From: Asaia bogorensis
GTDB lineage: Bacteria; Pseudomonadota; Alphaproteobacteria; Acetobacterales; Acetobacteraceae
NCBI GenBank assembly: GCA_945869965.1
Contig: CAMBRC010000006.1
Coordinates: forward strand, 1-64,000
Length of the DNA stretch: 64,000 nt
Direction: 5' to 3'
The translations under genes were made by a program, and so were the position numbers. This document shows positions 5,348 to 60,841 of this stretch, piece after piece. The notes under the pieces are model-generated. The model made no database searches and was not told the DNA's origin. It saw only the letters and a program-made list of their open reading frames with translations. Position 1 is the stretch's first letter. Every line of letters starts with the position of its first letter.

Positions 5348-6646
5348 ATGCCCCCCACCCTCCCCGCCCCCTGCGAAACCACCATCACCCGCCTCGGCGC
5401 CGAAGCCGACGGCCTGGCCACCCATCCCGAAACCGGCAAGCCGCTCTTCATCCCCTTCACCCTGCCCGGCGAGACCGTCCGTGCCACCCCCACCCACAAG
5501 CGCGGCGAAGGCTGGGCCGCCACCGCCGATATCCTCACCCCCAGCCCCGACCGCGTACCACCCCCCTGCCCCCATTTCACCGCCTGCGGCGGCTGCTCGC
5601 TCCAGCACCTGTCCGACCCCGCCTACGTGGCCTGGAAAACCGCCCTGCTCACCGCCGCCCTGGCCCGCGCCGGCTTCCCCGACACCCCGATCGGCGCCCT
5701 GCACCGCACCCCGCCCGCCACCCGCCGCCGCATGGACCTCGCGGTCCGCCGAATCCCCGGCGGCATCACCCTCGGCCTGCACGCCCCGCGCAGCACCACC
5801 GTCATCGACATCGGCGGCTGCCCGATCCTCGACCCCAAGCTCTACGCCCTGCTGCCCACCATGCGCGCCCTGTTCCGCACCCTCTCCAGCCCCCGCCGCG
5901 AAGGCTCGCTGGTGGTCAACCTGCTGGATTCCGGCCCCGACCTGCTGCTCCGCCTGGACTCCCCGCTCACCACCCCGGACCGCACCCGCCTGGCCGATTA
6001 CGCCCGCGCCCACGGCCTGCCCCGCATCAGCATCCAGGTGGGAAACGGCCCGGTCGAACCCGCGGCCGTCCTGCGCCCCGCCACCACCACCCTATCCGGC
6101 ATCGCCGTCATCCCGCCCCCCGGCGGCTTCCTGCAAGCCTCCCCCGCCGGCGAAGCCGCCATCGTCGCTGCCGTCCTCGCCGGCCTGCCCGACAAACTCC
6201 CGGCGAAATCCCGCATCGCCGACCTCTACGCCGGCAGCGGCACCCTGACCTTCGCCCTCGCCCAACGCGCCCGCGTCGCCGCCTTCGAAGGCGATGCCCC
6301 CTCCGCCGCCGCTTTACGCGATGCCACCAACCGCGCCGTCCTCGCTGGCCGCATCGAACCCTTCGCCCGCGACCTCGTCCGCCAGCCCCTCTCCGAAACC
6401 GAACTCTCCGCCTTCGCCGCCATTGTCCTCGACCCGCCCCACGCCGGCGCCGAAGCCCAGATCGCCCGCATTGCCGCGAGCAAAACCCGACGTGTCATTT
6501 ATGTCAGTTGCAACCCCGCCGCCCTGGCCCGCGACGCCGCCATGCTCCGCGGCGCCGGCTTCAAGCTCCTGGCCGCCACCCCGATCGACCAGTTCCTATG
6601 GTCTGCCCGCCTCGAATCCGTCTGCGTCTTCGACCGGTCGCGCTAA
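5348..6646 (+). CDS. 23S rRNA/tRNA uracil-C5 methyltransferase, RlmD/TrmA family
   Basis: A 432-residue SAM-dependent RNA methyltransferase that makes 5-methyluridine in rRNA or tRNA. The N-terminal part (about 1-70) is TRAM-like. A [4Fe-4S] site is visible as Cys74, Cys80, Cys83 (CPHFTACGGCSLQH) with a fourth at Cys158. The catalytic domain has the SAM motif ADLYAGSGTLTF, LDPPHAGA and the nucleophile motif YVSCNPAALARD. These features separate the family from other Rossmann methyltransferases. Which uridine is modified (U1939, U747 or tRNA U54) cannot be decided from sequence alone. It converges on cysE with only four bases between the stop codons and no clear terminator. Confidence 0.9.
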   Translation: MPPTLPAPCETTITRLGAEADGLATHPETGKPLFIPFTLPGETVRATPTHKRGEGWAATADILTPSPDRVPPPCPHFTACGGCSLQHLSDPAYVAWKTALLTAALARAGFPDTPIGALHRTPPATRRRMDLAVRRIPGGITLGLHAPRSTTVIDIGGCPILDPKLYALLPTMRALFRTLSSPRREGSLVVNLLDSGPDLLLRLDSPLTTPDRTRLADYARAHGLPRISIQVGNGPVEPAAVLRPATTTLSGIAVIPPPGGFLQASPAGEAAIVAAVLAGLPDKLPAKSRIADLYAGSGTLTFALAQRARVAAFEGDAPSAAALRDATNRAVLAGRIEPFARDLVRQPLSETELSAFAAIVLDPPHAGAEAQIARIAASKTRRVIYVSCNPAALARDAAMLRGAGFKLLAATPIDQFLWSARLESVCVFDRSR

Positions 6647-6650
6647 CCGC

Positions 6651-7496
6651 TCAGCCGGAACAATCGTCGCTCAGCATCTGATCCATCGTCAGCGCCGGCA
6701 TCGTAGTGTTGCGCGGCCCCACCGGCTTGGCCGGATTGCCGACCACCGTCGTATAGGGCTCGACATCGCGCAGCACGATGCTGCCGGCGCCGATCTTCGC
6801 CCCCTCGCCGATATCGAGATTGCCCAGGATCTTCGCCCCCGCCCCGATCAATACCCCGCGCCGCACCTTCGGATGGCGCTCGCCGCCCTCCTTGCCGGTA
6901 CCGCCCAAGGTCACTGAATGCAGCATCGAGACATCATCCTCGATCACCGCGGTCTCGCCGATCACGATCCCGGTGCCATGATCAAACATCAACCGCCGGC
7001 CCAGCCTGGCATTCGGATGGATATCCACCCCGAACACCTCGGACATCCGGCTCTGCAGGAACCGCGCCGCATGCTGCCGGCCATGGCGCCACAGGTGATG
7101 CGCCACCCGATGGGTCTGGATGGCGTGATAGCCCTTGAAATACAGGAACGGCGTCAACAGGTCGGTGCAGGATGGATCGCGCTCGCGGATCGCCATCAGG
7201 TCCTCGGCTGCGGCCGCGGCAATCTCCGGACAATCCTCCATCGCCTCCATCAATAGCGGCGCCAGGCACGCCGCCCCGAGATCGGCATCCTCCAGCTTGT
7301 GCGCCAGCCGGTGCGCCAGCGCATCGGCAAAGCTGTCATGGATCAGCAGCCCGTGATCCACCGTGCGGCCCAACATCGGCTCGCGCGCCACTGCATCACG
7401 GCCTTCGGCTGTCAGCACCTCCCAAGCCTCGCCGCCGACCGCGACACGGCGTTGGCGGACAGTCATCGAAGCAGCAAGTTCAGCGCAATCCCACAT
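6651..7496 (-). CDS. cysE: serine O-acetyltransferase
   Basis: A 281-residue enzyme that acetylates L-serine with acetyl-CoA, the first step of cysteine synthesis. An alpha-helical N-terminal domain (AEDLMAIRERDPSCTDLLTPFLYFKGYHAIQTHRVAHHLW) is followed by a left-handed beta-helix of hexapeptide repeats (VDIHPNARLGRRLMFDHGTGIVIGE). The catalytic His/Asp pair lies in MFDHGTG and EVFGVDIHP, and GGTGKEGGERHPKV is typical. The frame is open further upstream, but GGAGGA lies 8-9 bases before the ATG at 7496 and this start avoids overlap with sufA. It is the last gene of the SUF operon, 28 bases after sufA. This links cysteine supply to cysteine desulfurase demand. Confidence 0.93.
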   Translation of the reverse strand: MWDCAELAASMTVRQRRVAVGGEAWEVLTAEGRDAVAREPMLGRTVDHGLLIHDSFADALAHRLAHKLEDADLGAACLAPLLMEAMEDCPEIAAAAAEDLMAIRERDPSCTDLLTPFLYFKGYHAIQTHRVAHHLWRHGRQHAARFLQSRMSEVFGVDIHPNARLGRRLMFDHGTGIVIGETAVIEDDVSMLHSVTLGGTGKEGGERHPKVRRGVLIGAGAKILGNLDIGEGAKIGAGSIVLRDVEPYTTVVGNPAKPVGPRNTTMPALTMDQMLSDDCSG

Positions 7497-55026: not shown

Positions 55027-55135
55027 GGCGACTCCTCGCAGGCTTTGGGAGTGCGAGGGTAGGACAGGCGGGGGTTTATTGGAATTGGCGGTATTTGTTT
55101 TGATATCGGAATATTGAGGGCGTGAGTCGGCGGGG

Positions 55136-55777
55136 TCAGGCGGGGGCGGTTTTTTTGCTGAAATTGAGGAACGGCATCGGGCGGGGGCGGCGCTGGGGGT
55201 AGAGGGGGAGAAGGGGCGGGAGTTTGGGTTTGGGGGGTTTAGGTTGGCGAAGTGAGAGCCCCCCTCCGGCTCCCCCCGCCCGAGCGCGAGTGGAGAGAAG
55301 TAAGGCGGGTGGGAGGTCGACGCCGAGGAGGCGGCAGAGGGGGCGGAGGATGCGGCCGAGGGATTTGAGGGACTCGGGCGGGGCGGTGGCGAGGAGGGCT
55401 TGGGTGTTGGGGTCGCGGAGGAGGTTTTCGATTTGCCACATGGCGGCGGCGGCGTTGTGGCCGGCGTGGACGACCAGCCAGGCGCGGCGGCGGGGGATGT
55501 AGGGCGCGGGGGGGCCGCCCTTGGGGGCGGGTTGGCCGTCCGGACGGGGGGCGCGCTGGCGGGGGAGGCGGCCGGCGGCGATGTGGGCGAGGAGGCGGAC
55601 GAAGCGCAGGCGGGTGCGCGAGACGCGGTTCCAGACGGGGACGCAGAAGCGGACGAGGCGGTGCAGGCCGGCGGCGATGACGGGGAGGAGTTGGGCAAGG
55701 ATGGAGTCCAGGCGTTCGCCGAATTCCTTCGCCGGATGCGGGGCATCCGTGGGGGCGGGGGTTGGGTCCATGTTCAT
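55136..55777 (-). CDS. unrecognised 213-aa protein, paralog B (related to the protein at 4615-5259)
   Basis: No family recognised. The N-terminal 80 residues are helical and Arg/Leu-rich (ERLDSILAQLLPVIAAGLHRLVRFCVPVWNR). Then come PYIPRRRAWLVVHAGHNAAAAMWQIENLL and LGRILRPLCRLLGVDLPPALL, which align with paralog A. The C-terminal 55 residues are low complexity. Residues LLSTRARAGGAGGG are encoded by the canonical 46-bp dispersed repeat. The start ATG lies six bases after a -10 element. Function unknown; conservation of promoter and core argues that both copies are real genes. Confidence 0.7.
   Translation of the reverse strand: MNMDPTPAPTDAPHPAKEFGERLDSILAQLLPVIAAGLHRLVRFCVPVWNRVSRTRLRFVRLLAHIAAGRLPRQRAPRPDGQPAPKGGPPAPYIPRRRAWLVVHAGHNAAAAMWQIENLLRDPNTQALLATAPPESLKSLGRILRPLCRLLGVDLPPALLLSTRARAGGAGGGLSLRQPKPPKPKLPPLLPLYPQRRPRPMPFLNFSKKTAPA
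55255..55300. repeat. 46-bp GC-rich dispersed repeat inside paralog B
   Basis: On the - strand this runs from CTTCTCTCCACTC to GGAGGGGGGCTCT and matches the intergenic copy at 4441-4486 at 44 of 46 positions. It is translated in frame. Confidence 0.65.
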
Positions 55778-55783
55778 TTTTTG

Positions 55784-55812
55784 TTCTTAGCATGGGCCGG
55801 CGGTGGGTGCAA
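55784..55812 (-). promoter_or_regulatory. putative leaderless promoter of paralog B
   Basis: On the - strand, TTGCAC (55812-55807), a 17-base spacer and TAAGAA (55789-55784) are followed by CAAAAA and the ATG at 55777. The -35 hexamer, spacer length and first spacer bases (CC) match the promoter of paralog A at 4579-4607, and both place transcription start at or next to the start codon. Confidence 0.6.
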
Positions 55813-55930
55813 GCTATTTTGTTAGCCAATACTTCTAAGCGCGCCAGCCCCCGACTGCGGGGGGCGGAGATCGGACCGTTGGGCTCGGCGCCGGAATGGC
55901 AGCTGCAGGCGCCCAAGCCGGTGGGGACCA

Positions 55931-58342
55931 TCAAGAGGCCAGCATTGCCTCGTCGAGGCACTTGCCGAACTCCGCAAACCTTGCCGCATCGAACGGAAAT
56001 GTTCGGTGTTCGGATACGGACTTAAGAAGCGTTCTGGCTTCTTCGTACGCGCGTCGTCGCTCCATGGCGGGACCAAACACGACTGTTGCGGTCGCGATGA
56101 CCACCTTACCATAATAACTGAGATCGGAATGCGCCCGGGTGTCCGGCGGGCCCTTGAAATCGATAAAGGCCTTCGCACCAATGTTCCTGAGATCGGGGGT
56201 GCTGCGCATCAACAGGCCGATACCGATGAGATTGACCAGATTGCGCCGGCGGAGGTTGTTGAGAACCGCCCTAATCTCATCGGCAGAAACACGGTAGGGA
56301 TGCGATGAAGCGAGATCGGGGGCCGTCGGCAGGCTGGCGAGTGCTGCCAACCGCGCGGGAACAGCGGCAACCAAGTGCTGCATCCTACCGGCCAAGTCGA
56401 GCATCGCGTCCGCGAAGCCGCGATCCGACACCACGCCGGGGGCCGATCCCCACAGGAACAGCAGTTTGGACAGTGCGAGCGCGTGACGCTCCGAGGTGAC
56501 GCGCTCGACGACGACGTCAAGACCGGGATCGACACGTCGCTCCGCCTCGGCAATGTCGAGCACGCCCTGGAGAATGCCATCCAGAGGATCGAGGTCTGCT
56601 TGGGTGCGGGCCATCATGCGACGGCAGAAAGCCTCAAGAAACCCGGCCTCTCGCCCGTTGGGTTCAGCCGGCTCAAGGGAGCCTCCGACTGCGGCGGAGC
56701 CCAGCTTGCGGGCATGCTGGCAAAGGAAGATCGCTGATTGCCAATGTTGCCCGATAGCAAGAAGGTAAGCGACAGCAACGGAGAAATTGTAGCCGCTGGA
56801 GTCGCGTAGATTTATGCGCTCATGCAGGCGATGATATTCATCAATCTTAAAGGTTTGAGGATTCTGGTACCATGCACGCGCCTTGGTGAGGAACTCGTCT
56901 GTGGGCGCGCTGCCTTCGAAGCAGAGCCGTGGCACCCCACGCGCCGGCGCACGGCCATCATGGGCGCTGATCACTTCGATCAGGAAGCGCGCATTGGTGA
57001 ACACAGCGACACAGTCGTGCCAAGCTTTTTCCATATGACTGTCGACAAGCGGACGGGTGTCAATGATGGCCTGTCGCAGAACGTCGACCCCATGCGCCAA
57101 TGCGCGCATCATCAGTTTTATAAACTCTTGGTCAGATTTTACTTCTTGGTCAAGACTCTTGCCCTGCACCGCAAGCGCATCGTTGACGAACTCGTGCCAC
57201 TTTGCACGGATATTCAACGCCGCATTGGGCTCCTTCTTCGAGATTTGACGAATCTCGGCTGTCAGACCTTCCTCCAGCTCATAACCATACTCGCTCCAGT
57301 CGCCCGGTGTGCGGCGGTCGAGGTAGCGTCCGACCAGCAACTCCAGCCACGAACGAAATGGCTGAAGTGTGCCGGGGGCCGACAGCTTAACGTACCGGTC
57401 TGGTCGGGCAGCCAGAACGCCGGATGCCTCGAAATATGATTTCGGGTGCCGGATACAATATTCTCTGAATGACATTTTAGAATATTCCGAACTTAAATAA
57501 TAATTCTTACTCGATCGTAGTATTGAATTGTCTGATGTGATGTAGATCAACCTCCGCTTCGGCTGCAACTTTGCAAGATGACGGTTCCAGATCTCTAGCC
57601 GCGCCAAGGCATCGGCGTCCCGACGCATCGCCGGCGATTCATCACGGCCCATATCCGCGCCCAACCTCTTGGTCCAGGCTGATTTCGCTTCGGCGTAGTC
57701 GAGCATGTCGATCAGACGCTGCCAGGGTGCCAAGACGGCGGCCAAGGCCGGATCGACTTCACCCGGCTCGGCCCAGGGGAGGAGATTGATGTTGAGGAAC
57801 CGCCTGGTCTCCTCCAGTTCACGAATGCGCGTGATCTGCAGCGGTCTGCCATTGTCGATCAAGAGCATGCGCATCAGGGTATCGATTTCGTCTTGGGGAA
57901 GTTGCTGGCCCTGACTTTGCGCCTGGGTGATGATTTCCTCCACCTGGGATGCGTCGATCTTTTCCGGTTTGGCCCATAGACTGATCTGGCGCATGTAGGC
58001 GCCAACTTCGAGATCAATCGGCGGGATCAGAAGAAACGGCTGGTCCGGTTGTAGTTTGTGCCACAGGTAGCGTCCGAGTAGGGCGGCAAGATGCGCCTTG
58101 CGGTCCTCAGGATCGTCGCGAAATATCTCGCCATTGCCAATACGTCGATTTTCGCTTCTTTCTGCCCGATTTTTTGGATTGACATAGAGGTCAATAATAT
58201 TGCTGTCGATGGCATAGTGAAGCTTGTAGCCAGTACTCTGCAAGTCGCCGTCAATTTCGGCGAGGCTCAGCAGGTCGGCCTGGGCGGCGGCATCGGTGAC
58301 GTAGTCCACCAGATCAGGCGTGGGAGATTGCGGCACAGTCAT
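55931..58342 (-). CDS. large protein with N-terminal PIN-nuclease-like domain, unrecognised family
   Basis: An 803-residue protein. The segment LHYAIDSNIIDLYVNPKNR (Asp46) matches PIN motif 1. DADALARLEIWNRHLAKLQ and LIYITSDNSILRS (Asp271) match the middle and C-terminal acidic motifs, so residues 40-290 are probably a PIN-like metal-dependent RNase/DNase domain with an insertion. The remaining 500 residues are mainly helical, with ESGYNFSVAVAYLLAIGQHWQSAIFLCQHARKLG resembling a TPR-like stretch. No known family is recognised. The ATG overlaps the stop of a small ORF (ATGA) and has no Shine-Dalgarno, so translation is probably coupled. GC is lower than in neighbours, especially 57100-57600 and 58130-58230. 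Likely acquired. Confidence 0.75.
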   Translation of the reverse strand: MTVPQSPTPDLVDYVTDAAAQADLLSLAEIDGDLQSTGYKLHYAIDSNIIDLYVNPKNRAERSENRRIGNGEIFRDDPEDRKAHLAALLGRYLWHKLQPDQPFLLIPPIDLEVGAYMRQISLWAKPEKIDASQVEEIITQAQSQGQQLPQDEIDTLMRMLLIDNGRPLQITRIRELEETRRFLNINLLPWAEPGEVDPALAAVLAPWQRLIDMLDYAEAKSAWTKRLGADMGRDESPAMRRDADALARLEIWNRHLAKLQPKRRLIYITSDNSILRSSKNYYLSSEYSKMSFREYCIRHPKSYFEASGVLAARPDRYVKLSAPGTLQPFRSWLELLVGRYLDRRTPGDWSEYGYELEEGLTAEIRQISKKEPNAALNIRAKWHEFVNDALAVQGKSLDQEVKSDQEFIKLMMRALAHGVDVLRQAIIDTRPLVDSHMEKAWHDCVAVFTNARFLIEVISAHDGRAPARGVPRLCFEGSAPTDEFLTKARAWYQNPQTFKIDEYHRLHERINLRDSSGYNFSVAVAYLLAIGQHWQSAIFLCQHARKLGSAAVGGSLEPAEPNGREAGFLEAFCRRMMARTQADLDPLDGILQGVLDIAEAERRVDPGLDVVVERVTSERHALALSKLLFLWGSAPGVVSDRGFADAMLDLAGRMQHLVAAVPARLAALASLPTAPDLASSHPYRVSADEIRAVLNNLRRRNLVNLIGIGLLMRSTPDLRNIGAKAFIDFKGPPDTRAHSDLSYYGKVVIATATVVFGPAMERRRAYEEARTLLKSVSEHRTFPFDAARFAEFGKCLDEAMLAS

Positions 58343-58461
58343 GCCGAAACCGGCACGAGGTCTGCGATTGGCAGGAACTCCCGCTCGATGGCATCGAGAT
58401 CCTGGGGACGGAAGCCGCCCAAGCGACGGTCGGTTGGCGGCAAGCGCAGCATTGGCCGCAT
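58339..58461 (-). CDS. small 40-codon ORF coupled to the PIN-like gene (possible severed 3' end of the preceding gene)
   Basis: The sequence begins MRPMLRLPPTDRRLGG and ends ADLVPVSA. Its TGA overlaps the next ATG as ATGA. The frame continues upstream without a stop to the TAG that ends the 300-aa gene at 58501, so it may be the natural C terminus of that protein separated by a nonsense mutation. Alternatively it is a true small gene or leader. Confidence 0.4.
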   Translation of the reverse strand: MRPMLRLPPTDRRLGGFRPQDLDAIEREFLPIADLVPVSA

Positions 58462-58500
58462 CCGGGCAGACTTAGACGGCGCAACGAAGGCGGCAGGCGA

Positions 58501-59403
58501 CTATCTCACGCAATTTCTGAGGCTATCCAACTGACGGCCCGACATGATTTCGGCACACCACCAATCGGCCTCCTGCCCCCTGATTGAACCATGGAACCCG
58601 GCTGATGCACGCTCGCTCCAGCAATCGATGCTCTCGTCGATTGGCGCGACGCCGACCTGGCCGACGACCGCGCCAACGATCTTGGCGACAAAAGCTGCCC
58701 GTTCTGCAACACGGCGCGGTGTTTTCGCCTCATTGCACACTGAGGGGGCGAAATAGGCCTGGAGCGGCGGGTGCAGCCGCCGCAGATGTTGGGCGAGTCC
58801 GGCGGGGTTTGCCTTGCACAATGCGGGCAAGGCACGGCGGGCGTGCATCGATGTGAAACCCTCAGCATCAGCCAGGCGAGCAAGCGCACGCTCGGCGACG
58901 GCATCGTCGTGGGTAGCCAGGTCAGCGATCAGGTCGACCGCCATGGAGAGGAGTTCGCCGCCGGGTGCGGTGGCAAAACCCTGATCGCTGCAACGGGCAA
59001 ACATGGCGAGCACCGCGTGGGCACGGATGCGCCCGGCCAGAGAGAGCAGTTCACGCGCCACGAGGGCGTCACCGCGGTCGGCGAAATCGAGCCGCTTCAG
59101 GCCATCTGCTGCACCATTGGCGAAAGCCAACTGGGTGTCAGGTGCCAGCATGCGCCAAATGGCAGCAAGGTCATCTACCAGCAAGTCGCGCTTGCCTACG
59201 TAACGCTGGGCGCCGGGAAAGGCGCGCATCATATCAGGCCCGAAGAGGTCAAAGCGGATGCCGACGACGAGCCAGTCGGCAAAGAACTCCGACGGCTTAT
59301 CGTCAATGGCGGTTAGCCCCGGAGAGGGCGAGGCGGAGGAGTCAGTTCGGTCCAAGCGCGGTCTCCAGTTCAGCGAAATCCCGGTACGGCGCGACCGAAG
59401 CAT
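58501..59403 (-). CDS. unrecognised 300-aa protein of the accessory module
   Basis: No family recognised. After a basic N-terminal stretch (MLRSRRTGISLNWRPRL) the protein is mostly helical: WLVVGIRFDLFGPDMMRAFPGAQRY, LLVDDLAAIWRMLAP, ELLSLAGRIRAHAVLAMFARC, LLSMAVDLIADLATHDDAVAERALARLADAEGF, AERAAFVAKIVGAVV. The alternating helices may form a HEAT- or TPR-like repeat scaffold. The ATG at 59403 is 63 bases after the preceding gene. The stop TAG is followed by 53 sense codons in frame that end overlapping the start of the PIN-like gene, suggesting a possible C-terminal truncation. Confidence 0.65.
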   Translation of the reverse strand: MLRSRRTGISLNWRPRLDRTDSSASPSPGLTAIDDKPSEFFADWLVVGIRFDLFGPDMMRAFPGAQRYVGKRDLLVDDLAAIWRMLAPDTQLAFANGAADGLKRLDFADRGDALVARELLSLAGRIRAHAVLAMFARCSDQGFATAPGGELLSMAVDLIADLATHDDAVAERALARLADAEGFTSMHARRALPALCKANPAGLAQHLRRLHPPLQAYFAPSVCNEAKTPRRVAERAAFVAKIVGAVVGQVGVAPIDESIDCWSERASAGFHGSIRGQEADWWCAEIMSGRQLDSLRNCVR

Positions 59404-59466
59404 ACCACACGCTTCTTGGTGAAGATATTGTAAGGTTTGGGAGCGATGCGGTCAGATTCCGGCGTG

Positions 59467-60495
59467 TCATGGAATTATCCGCGCAAAGGCCGAATCGGAT
59501 GGCGCGTGAATATCACGTATGGTGCCGCGGACCGTTGTCAACTCTCCGAGCAGTTCAAAACTGATCCGACGTCTGGCGAAATCGCTGGCGTGCAACTGGT
59601 GTGCGACGCGCTCCTGGGCACCGTCGAAGGACGCGGCCCCAGCATCAATGCGTTCGAGATCCGCGGTTTGGCCCCAAGAGCCGCCTGGCGCGCCCCCTGG
59701 GACGGTGGAGGTCGCAAGGAAGCGCCGGTTGTCGAGCGCATCGGCGAATGACGGCCGGTAGTGGCCGACATCCTGGATGATACGGCCGGGGAAGCGCAGC
59801 AGGAATAGCCATGTCGGCTGGATTGCTCTCGTGCTTGGGTCGAGTTCGGGCAGATGCACGAGGCCGAGGAGATCTCGAAGATATGCCGCATGGTTGGCGG
59901 GTGCGGCCGCGGCCCGAAAGCGCTGGAGTGCGCCGTGCGTCAAGAACCATACTATGCCACGTGAGATTGCTTTGCCGTCAGCCAGACGAAACCGCCGATG
60001 AGGTTCGGGCAGGGCGCCGATGGCGGTGATCCAAGGCTCAACATCCGACCGCATACCAAGTGCCGAAGGGTACCCGATCGGCAACAACTTCCGAAAGCGG
60101 AATCTATCCCGATCAGAAATCAAACCGTGCAAGGTGCGGTGGTCGATCACACGCGCGATTTCGACAGCATCGAGGTCAGGCGAGGCAGGTGCAAAGGCTG
60201 GGAACATCCCGACATCGGGCGTCACGCGCGTACCAAACGGCACCGGTCGGAGCTGGAAACGAGTGCGCCGGACCCGGAGGTTGATCTCGCTCATTAGGTC
60301 ATCGCCCGACAACGATGCAAGGCCAGCGTATGCGGACTTTCCGTGGAGTCCGGCGGCAATGCGCAAACGCCGGACATCTCGCGGCAAGAACAGCTTGTCG
60401 CGCACTCCGGCAGCCAGATTCTTCAGTGCGATGCTCAGCAACGGCTCCGAATCGATGAATACCCGAACGACTTGTGAAACTGTCTTAAGCGACAT
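59467..60495 (-). CDS. unrecognised 342-aa protein, first gene of the accessory module
   Basis: No family recognised. Visible segments are SLKTVSQVVRVFIDSEPLLSIALKNLAAGVRDKLFLPRDVRRL, LMSEINLRVRRTRFQLRPVPFG, DLDAVEIARVIDHRTLHGLISDRDRFRFRKLLPIGYPSA and PTWLFLLRFPGRIIQDVG. It is soluble, basic, without signal or membrane segments. AGGGAA lies seven bases before the ATG at 60495; the frame is open to 60585. It shares strand and base composition with the two following genes and probably heads one transcript. Confidence 0.65.
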   Translation of the reverse strand: MSLKTVSQVVRVFIDSEPLLSIALKNLAAGVRDKLFLPRDVRRLRIAAGLHGKSAYAGLASLSGDDLMSEINLRVRRTRFQLRPVPFGTRVTPDVGMFPAFAPASPDLDAVEIARVIDHRTLHGLISDRDRFRFRKLLPIGYPSALGMRSDVEPWITAIGALPEPHRRFRLADGKAISRGIVWFLTHGALQRFRAAAAPANHAAYLRDLLGLVHLPELDPSTRAIQPTWLFLLRFPGRIIQDVGHYRPSFADALDNRRFLATSTVPGGAPGGSWGQTADLERIDAGAASFDGAQERVAHQLHASDFARRRISFELLGELTTVRGTIRDIHAPSDSAFARIIP

Positions 60496-60714
60496 CGCAT
60501 TTCCCTGACGAGCCGGACGATGTGCCATCGATCCATTATGTGTCAAGTCTGCGACAATTCCGTTACTGATACGTGTTTTCGGCATCCGATCTATTCATTG
60601 GTCACCGCGAGCTCTTGGCCGGATCAAAGTGCAGACGCTGCGCACTCAGCTAGCGAACAGACGTGGGTACTTCGCCTCCTGGCTTCACCCCCTACAGGTC
60701 CTATGGATGCGGGT

Positions 60715-60755
60715 CCGGGGGTGCTACCCCCGGCGGATGCAGGGCGGCGCCCTGC
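60715..60755. repeat. GC-rich double-hairpin repeat, second copy
   Basis: The 346 bases between the accessory module and the amidohydrolase pair contain this element and otherwise nothing I can name. CCGGGGGT GCT ACCCCCGG (60715-60733) and GCAGGGC GGC GCCCTGC (60739-60755) have 3-base loops and the same order and spacing as 12115-12135 and 12144-12158 in the SUF operon. The flanking GGGTCC is also shared. Confidence 0.6.
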
Positions 60756-60841
60756 CCTTCCTTGCTGTTGTTGCGTGGGGGATGGTTGGTAGTAGGATGC
60801 AGGGGTGAGCGCGCGTGGATGCGCCGCGGGAGAGACGCGAT

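What the first reader, a model, noticed from the sequence alone, without database searches (positions are those of the whole stretch)
55931..60495. Candidate undescribed accessory system: two unknown proteins plus a PIN-like nuclease
Three - strand genes (342, 300 and 803 aa) and a small overlapping ORF match no family I know. They differ in base composition from the surroundings, are ordered as one transcript, and lie between a hairpin repeat (60715-60755) and an orphan paralog gene. The last gene carries PIN-like acidic motifs. Several helical, non-enzymatic-looking partners with one predicted nuclease, in a compositionally distinct cassette, is a layout often seen in defence or conflict systems. 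Function is inference.
Basis: partly seen in the sequence, partly recalled or inferred. Interest (0 to 1): 0.75.

Follow-up and report, generated by a model that had tools for sequence, protein, structure and literature searches.

The report
Undescribed three-gene module on genomic island
A set of three unnamed genes that keep the same order in distantly related bacteria sits on a stretch of DNA that close relatives of this bacterium lack; one of the genes looks like an RNA-cutting enzyme, so the set may be a defence or conflict system, but its function has not been shown.

Summary
Three minus-strand genes (A 342, B 300, C 803 aa) have no meaningful Pfam, NCBIfam, PADLOC or PDB match. They form a conserved module: A-B-C occurs in that order at 12 loci in 11 genomes, diverges in step (Mantel r 0.96-0.98), and shows purifying selection in one close pair. 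The window copy lies on a roughly 5.78-kb insertion missing from 7 of 7 same-genus genomes with both flanks.

Corrections: the 'small overlapping ORF' is the tail of B behind an in-frame TAG; the 'orphan' gene belongs to a family with 51 matches in this genome.

C keeps PIN-type acids D46, E112, D242 in 15 of 15 relatives, but profile comparison with PIN_8 was not significant and AlphaFold models failed. Known defence genes lie near some copies, but control segments of the same genomes hit more defence models.

Best reading: a rare, apparently mobile module around a PIN-like nuclease, possibly abortive-infection defence. The module is near certain, the nuclease likely, defence unproven.

The parts
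55040..60820 (.). Species-specific insertion (approximate edges) carrying the cassette, a multi-copy gene and a hairpin repeat
   Evidence: In 7 of 7 same-genus genomes with both flanks, homology stops at 55029-55073 and resumes at 60818-60823, with 111-135 bp (G004: 768 bp) between. No repeat pairing the two edges was seen.
59467..60495 (-). Gene A (342 aa; alternative start 60585): family with conserved L-G-L, H, R-P, D, W-G-x-T and D-G-x-x-E-R positions
   Evidence: no family match, PDB profile search best E 0.65
58501..59403 (-). Gene B (300 aa), weakly conserved in sequence, ends at an in-frame TAG
   Evidence: no family match
58339..58500 (-).
   Evidence: Same frame; GC by codon position 0.70/0.56/0.72, like B; its stop overlaps the C start by 4 nt
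55931..58342 (-). Gene C (803 aa): N-terminal PIN-like region plus a long C-terminal part with a conserved G-R-E-A motif
57443..58225 (-). PIN-like region of C (residues 40-300); invariant acids D46 (58205-58207), E112 (58007-58009), D242 (57617-57619)
   Evidence: 15 of 15 sequences keep all three; the fourth position (D271) is D in 7 of 15
55136..55777 (-). 213-aa gene of a multi-copy family of this genus; passenger on the island, probably not part of the module
   Evidence: 51 matches in this genome, 2-26 in each of 8 relatives; not noticed in the ORF lists of the other A-B-C loci, where it was not searched for
60704..60767 (.). Dispersed hairpin repeat at the upstream edge of the insertion
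   Evidence: Short matches of 71-89% identity elsewhere in this genome and in the genus

Best explanation
A, B and C are an apparently mobile accessory module centred on C, a PIN-like metal-dependent nuclease with a long regulatory C-terminal part; A and B are its usual partners. Proposed working: A and B hold C inactive and sense a foreign or stress signal; on sensing, C cuts RNA and stops growth or kills the cell, limiting phage or another invader. Shown here: a co-inherited unit of three genes, conserved order, congruent divergence, purifying selection in one pair, presence on an insertion absent from the genus, invariant D-E-D acids. Inferred: the PIN fold, RNase activity, the roles of A and B, and the defence purpose. 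In the window copy an in-frame TAG cuts B 53 codons short, so this copy may be impaired.
For: A-B-C order at 12 loci in 11 genomes: window, L004, L017-L023, L026, L046, L047; a 13th (G446) appears split over two contigs. Mantel r 0.956/0.965/0.981, p=0.0001, over 11 loci. dN/dS 0.260 (A), 0.155 (B), 0.144 (C) for L020 vs L021. Empty site in 7 of 7 genus relatives; no C match in 8 of 8 same-genus genomes. D46, E112 and D242 invariant in 15 of 15, in the PIN order; PIN_8 proteins show the same layout with a long insertion between E and D (read by eye). C occurs with other partners in two cases (L024; Ruegeria plasmid L027: FAD/NAD-binding-like protein plus a 264-296 aa protein), the kind of partner swapping expected of conflict systems. 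Single loci lie near IetA/IetS, RhuM-Fic, a type I R fragment with an NTase/NTase-binding pair, ParE or Fic.
Against: No PIN-clan Pfam match in the 7 of 15 C proteins scanned. Profile-profile comparison with PIN_8: probability 0.4%, and 3 of 60 column-shuffled controls scored higher. AlphaFold model of the C N-terminus unusable (pLDDT 36.7). Fourth PIN acid not D in 8 of 15. No sign of defence enrichment: 92 flank proteins hit 59 PADLOC models, 91 control proteins hit 143. No phage, viral-contig or plasmid copy of the A-B-C form with the queries used. B in the window has an in-frame stop; in L026 A and B are short ORFs. G473 has A-B without C, G757 has C without A-B.
Confidence: 0.4

Rival explanations
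1. A three-component toxin-antitoxin or addiction module: C is a nuclease toxin, B and/or A neutralise it, and the set persists by stabilising the DNA that carries it rather than by phage defence.
For: Patchy distribution, insertion absent from the genus, nuclease-like acids, a ParE gene next to the G282 locus.
Against: A and B are larger than typical antitoxins (general knowledge); no plasmid copy of the A-B-C form found; B is cut short in the window while C stays open.
Confidence: 0.25
2. A metabolic, RNA-processing or stress accessory operon spread by horizontal transfer, with no role in conflict.
For: No defence enrichment over control; several loci lie among what read as ordinary genes (L017, L023); purifying selection in one pair.
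Against: Rare and patchy even within one order (C in 9 of 48), not found in the other 8 genomes of the genus, strong divergence (window or L004 against the other loci: A 15-32%, B 14-33%, C 18-35% identity).
Confidence: 0.25
3. The window copy is a decaying remnant: the module is real elsewhere, but here B carries a nonsense change and C translation may be uncoupled.
For: TAG 53 codons before the apparent ancestral end; the tail still looks coding and overlaps the C start by 4 nt; all 11 other B proteins in the alignment run on past this point.
Against: A and C are fully open; only the poorly conserved end of B is lost; a sequencing or assembly error cannot be excluded.
Confidence: 0.35
4. C is not a PIN protein; the conserved acids belong to another fold, and C is a structural or adaptor protein.
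For: No PIN profile match; fourth acid variable.
Against: Three invariant acids in PIN-type motif order and plausible spacing.
Confidence: 0.3

Closest known systems
PIN_8 domain proteins (PF18476)
   Same: Similar order D - (strand)...E - long insertion - D - strand-TxD, read by eye
   Different: No significant profile match; C has about 500 further residues and two usual partner genes; fourth acid not conserved
DefensePredictor DS-3 and DS-5 (PMC13092281; passages and section 7 seen)
   Same: PIN ribonuclease-centred defence systems described as having no cognate antitoxin (DS-3) or as likely not toxin-antitoxin (DS-5, which needs a second protein)
   Different: DS-3 is one protein with a split PIN; DS-5 has a DUF5830/AcrIF4-like partner, and no such Pfam match came up for the A and B proteins scanned. 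Sequences were not compared directly
TPR - GreA/B-C - PIN conflict system (PMC8195603; passages and section 7 seen)
   Same: Long, rapidly evolving protein with an unusual PIN domain; exchange of associated modules
   Different: There mostly a standalone protein with C-terminal PIN and a GreA/B-C domain; here the acids are N-terminal, no GreA/B match came up, and there are partner genes
Nuclease-protease pairs in Hachiman/AVAST (PMC12799240; abstract and start of the introduction seen)
   Same: A nuclease kept inactive until a partner acts on it is the same idea; the variant loci L024/L027 put C beside a protein that I read as trypsin-like with lost catalytic residues (my reading, no Pfam hit)
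   Different: Their nuclease is of the MBL type; no protease was recognised in A or B

Membership tests
PIN domain superfamily | Conserved acidic D-E-D(-D) in motif order (motif knowledge recalled) | tested here: met
   D46, E112 and D242 in 15 of 15; fourth D in 7 of 15. Met for three of four.
PIN domain superfamily | Match to a PIN-clan profile | tested here: not met
   No Pfam PIN hit in 7 C proteins; hhalign vs PIN_8 not above shuffles; the VapC comparison was too shallow and had one wrong-strand row
PIN domain superfamily | PIN fold | tested here: inconclusive
Known anti-phage systems (PADLOC-DB 2.0.0) | A component matches a system model | tested here: not met
   Window A, B, C and 9 relatives of A, B or C: nothing better than E 0.014
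Defence-island gene | Enriched next to known defence genes | tested here: not met
   59 PADLOC models hit by 92 flank proteins vs 143 by 91 control proteins at 1e-12; coarse, since models and not proteins are counted
TPR-GreA/B-C-PIN conflict protein | GreA/B-C domain and C-terminal PIN in one protein | tested here: not met
   No GreA/B Pfam match; conserved acids lie N-terminally
Type II toxin-antitoxin (VapBC) | PF01850 toxin in a small two-gene pair | tested here: not met
   No PF01850 hit at C; genes of 300-803 aa
Co-inherited gene module | Conserved order and congruent divergence | tested here: met
   12 loci in 11 genomes; Mantel p=0.0001 over 11 loci
Anti-phage defence | Protects against phage | not testable with these tools
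   Needs experiment

The most novel reading that the evidence does not exclude
A new class of PIN-nuclease-centred immune or conflict system in which the nuclease C is constant and its sensing/regulatory pair is interchangeable: A+B in most loci, a flavin-binding-like protein plus a trypsin-like pseudo-protease in a plasmid and in one other genome.
Probability: 0.3. Interest if true: 0.75.

Novelty: new variant of a known kind. Interest (0 to 1): 0.5.

Why it matters
If true, this adds a rare nuclease system whose three protein families are absent from the reference libraries searched. It is defined tightly enough (three genes, named catalytic candidates, intact homologues) to be cloned and tested at once. 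It would also show that automated defence catalogues can miss conserved modules carried by little-studied proteobacterial lineages.

Tried and rejected
B was not modelled.

Profile-profile: C N-terminus vs own-genome VapC proteins (shallow, and one of three rows was read on the wrong strand, so uninformative) and vs 10 sequences, 9 PIN_8 proteins plus the PIN-like protein annotated on the Ruegeria plasmid (not above shuffles; L096-L098 were not used). A and B vs the variant-2 partner proteins: no similarity.

Collections in which no A-B-C form was found: IMG/VR scans with window C, A1, A2 and A3; plasmids with window C, B, A, other C proteins and L020 A; phages with two C proteins. A and B were not searched in phages, nor B in IMG/VR. 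The one plasmid hit (E 0.007) led to the variant in Ruegeria; its C found only itself among plasmids. The genome-contig scan returned only a contig of the same length and content as that of G282.

G265 (E 9.7e-4 over 60 aa, one stop inside) was dropped as chance after reading its ORFs. G421 holds only a C fragment (L048); G473 has A and a longer B without C (L045); G487 has a weak A match beside a 535-aa ORF without match (L050).

Defence-island argument: attractive examples, but the control did not support it. The flank set left out ORFs under 150 or over 2000 aa and loci L021, L024, L027 and the window; the control used arbitrary contigs of the same ten genomes, which themselves carry RM, RT and Cas genes. 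The output counts models, not proteins, and lists 25 of them, so it is coarse.
Full report
What is there. Three minus-strand genes, A (60495-59467, 342 aa), B (59403-58501, 300 aa) and C (58342-55931, 803 aa), are open and closely spaced. For the window proteins Pfam, NCBIfam and PADLOC give nothing better than E 0.014, and C has no PDB sequence match; ten related or neighbouring proteins and the family profiles do no better. The cassette has GC 0.598 against 0.670 for the window; 5 of 238 sliding windows are as low, and none to its left is below 0.642. GC3 is 0.65-0.70 against 0.85-0.89 for four genes on the left; the two genes on the right are intermediate (0.72-0.79).

Two corrections. The 'small overlapping ORF' (58461-58339) is in frame with B and separated from it only by TAG at 58501-58503. 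Its codon-position GC is like that of B, and its stop overlaps the C start by 4 nt, as the B stop does in L017, L022 and L047. It is therefore most likely the tail of B behind an in-frame stop; whether that is a real truncation, read-through or a sequence error cannot be told here. The 'orphan paralog' (213 aa) belongs to a family with 51 matches in this genome and 2-26 in each of 8 relatives, and the hairpin at about 60704-60767 is a dispersed repeat.

An island. Seven of the eight other same-genus genomes gave both flanks; in all seven (G001-G005, G007, G008) homology to the left ends at 55029-55073 and to the right starts at 60818-60823, with 111-135 bp between them, or 768 bp in G004. G006 was not assessed, its flank being on a short contig. 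A search with C found no match in any of the eight (G006 is only 68% complete). So about 5.78 kb (213-aa gene, A-B-C, hairpin) appears to have been gained in this species. No repeat pairing the two edges was found, so the means of insertion is unknown.

A conserved module. A search of 385 genomes of the class with C alone found one true relative besides the window, G282 (G265 dropped as chance). A two-row profile found C in 10 of 398 phylum genomes and 2 of 299 family genomes, own genome included in both. In the order of G462, C is in 9 of 48, one of them a fragment; in a draw of 136 class genomes only the window. A is in 12 of 398 phylum genomes. Nine genomes are in both lists; G490 gained a C; G473 has A and B without C; G487 has a weak A only; G757 has C without A. 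The draws had the same size and the handles seen agree, but I did not verify that every genome is the same.

Gene order A-B-C holds at 12 loci in 11 genomes: window, L004 (G282), L017, L018, L019, L020, L021, L022, L023, L026, L046, L047, with G466 holding two. In L026, A is recognised only in a 201-aa ORF and B in a 194-aa ORF, so that copy may be damaged. In L022, B was recognised by position and by later alignment, not by the first search. G446 has A at the end of one contig and B-C at the start of another; its B match is weak (E 0.005). Distances of A, B and C across 11 loci (L026 left out) correlate at r 0.956-0.981 (Mantel p 0.0001), and for L020 vs L021 dN/dS is 0.260, 0.155 and 0.144. 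The window's closest relative among these is L004 (A 32%, B 33%, C 35%).

What C may be. Over 15 C proteins, D46, E112 and D242 are invariant; D46 follows a hydrophobic stretch ending in Y-x-x (14 of 15), E112 follows a hydrophobic, mostly proline-ending stretch, D242 is followed by an invariant L246, and then comes R264 with a hydrophobic strand and [TS]-x-D or another residue; the fourth acid is D in 7 of 15. This is the PIN order as I know it (recalled), and the PIN_8 proteins fetched show a similar layout with a long insertion (read by eye). Against it: no Pfam PIN match in the 7 C proteins scanned, hhalign against PIN_8 gave probability 0.4% with 3 of 60 shuffled controls higher, and the structure model is unusable. 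I put a PIN-like nuclease at about 0.65-0.7. The C-terminal 500 residues carry a conserved G-R-E-A motif (R and E; two relatives read P-H-E-A) and look helical and TPR-like to me; no call shows it.

Partner variation. In L024 (G757) and on the Ruegeria sp. YS9 plasmid NZ_CP102414.1 (L027, found at E 0.007 and matched by the C profile at 2e-35), C follows a FAD/NAD-binding-like protein (Pfam DAO 7e-9 in L024; below cut-off in L027) and a 264-296 aa protein instead of A and B. I read the latter as trypsin-like with lost catalytic residues; this is my reading, without a Pfam hit.

Defence? Near single loci lie IetA/IetS (L026), RhuM-Fic (L049), a type I R fragment with an NTase/NTase-binding pair (L046), ParE (L004) and Fic (L019). 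But 92 flank proteins of 12 stretches hit 59 PADLOC models at 1e-12, while 91 proteins from arbitrary contigs of the same ten genomes hit 143, including type I RM, RT and Cas1. So the neighbourhood does not single out defence. The window's own flanks (MFS, DinB-like, beta-lactamase-like, amidohydrolase-like; my reading) were not part of that test.

Literature. I searched for PIN-based and related systems (open-licence PMC papers only). Seen: passages of PMC7159879; passages and section 7 of PMC8195603 and of PMC13092281; abstract and start of the introduction of PMC12799240; the rest as search listings. Nothing in the parts seen describes this module; supplements and sequences of those papers were not compared.

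Judgement. The module is real and undescribed in the libraries searched (near certain). C as PIN-like nuclease is likely; defence by abortive RNA cleavage is the single best explanation at about 0.4, with toxin-antitoxin and non-conflict roles as serious rivals.

Noticed in passing
window 55136-55777: 213-aa gene family with 51 matches in this 4.7-Mb genome and 2-26 in each of 8 same-genus genomes; an expanded family with no Pfam, PADLOC or NCBIfam match.
   Followed up: partly
window 60704-60767: Hairpin repeat dispersed through this genome and the genus; one copy lies about 140 bp from another copy of the 213-aa gene on G000:C2.
   Followed up: partly
L084:70-1065: Reverse transcriptase (RVT_1, 3e-20) just upstream of a VapC-like PIN gene (1495-1899) elsewhere in this genome; possible retron or DRT-type element.
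   Followed up: no
L075 about 6473-7242 (G004): The intergenic site that holds the island in the window carries a different 0.77-kb stretch in G004, with an ORF start that resembles another repeated family (my reading).
   Followed up: no
L027 (NZ_CP102414.1 plasmid): Plasmid cluster: ATP-binding protein, DEAD helicase, PIN-like protein, flavin-binding-like protein, 264-aa protein and a C relative.
   Followed up: partly
L045:8014-10710: A followed by a longer B (521 aa) without C: possible two-gene derivative.
   Followed up: no
L022:13348-14373: ADP-ribosylglycohydrolase gene (4e-60) directly upstream of A; not noticed at the other loci.
   Followed up: no
L004:7267-9363: A short coding stretch (NEALELEG.RHL.RME) appears twice, either side of a ParE gene next to the A-B-C genes; the protein looks phage-like to me, without a Pfam hit.
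   Followed up: no
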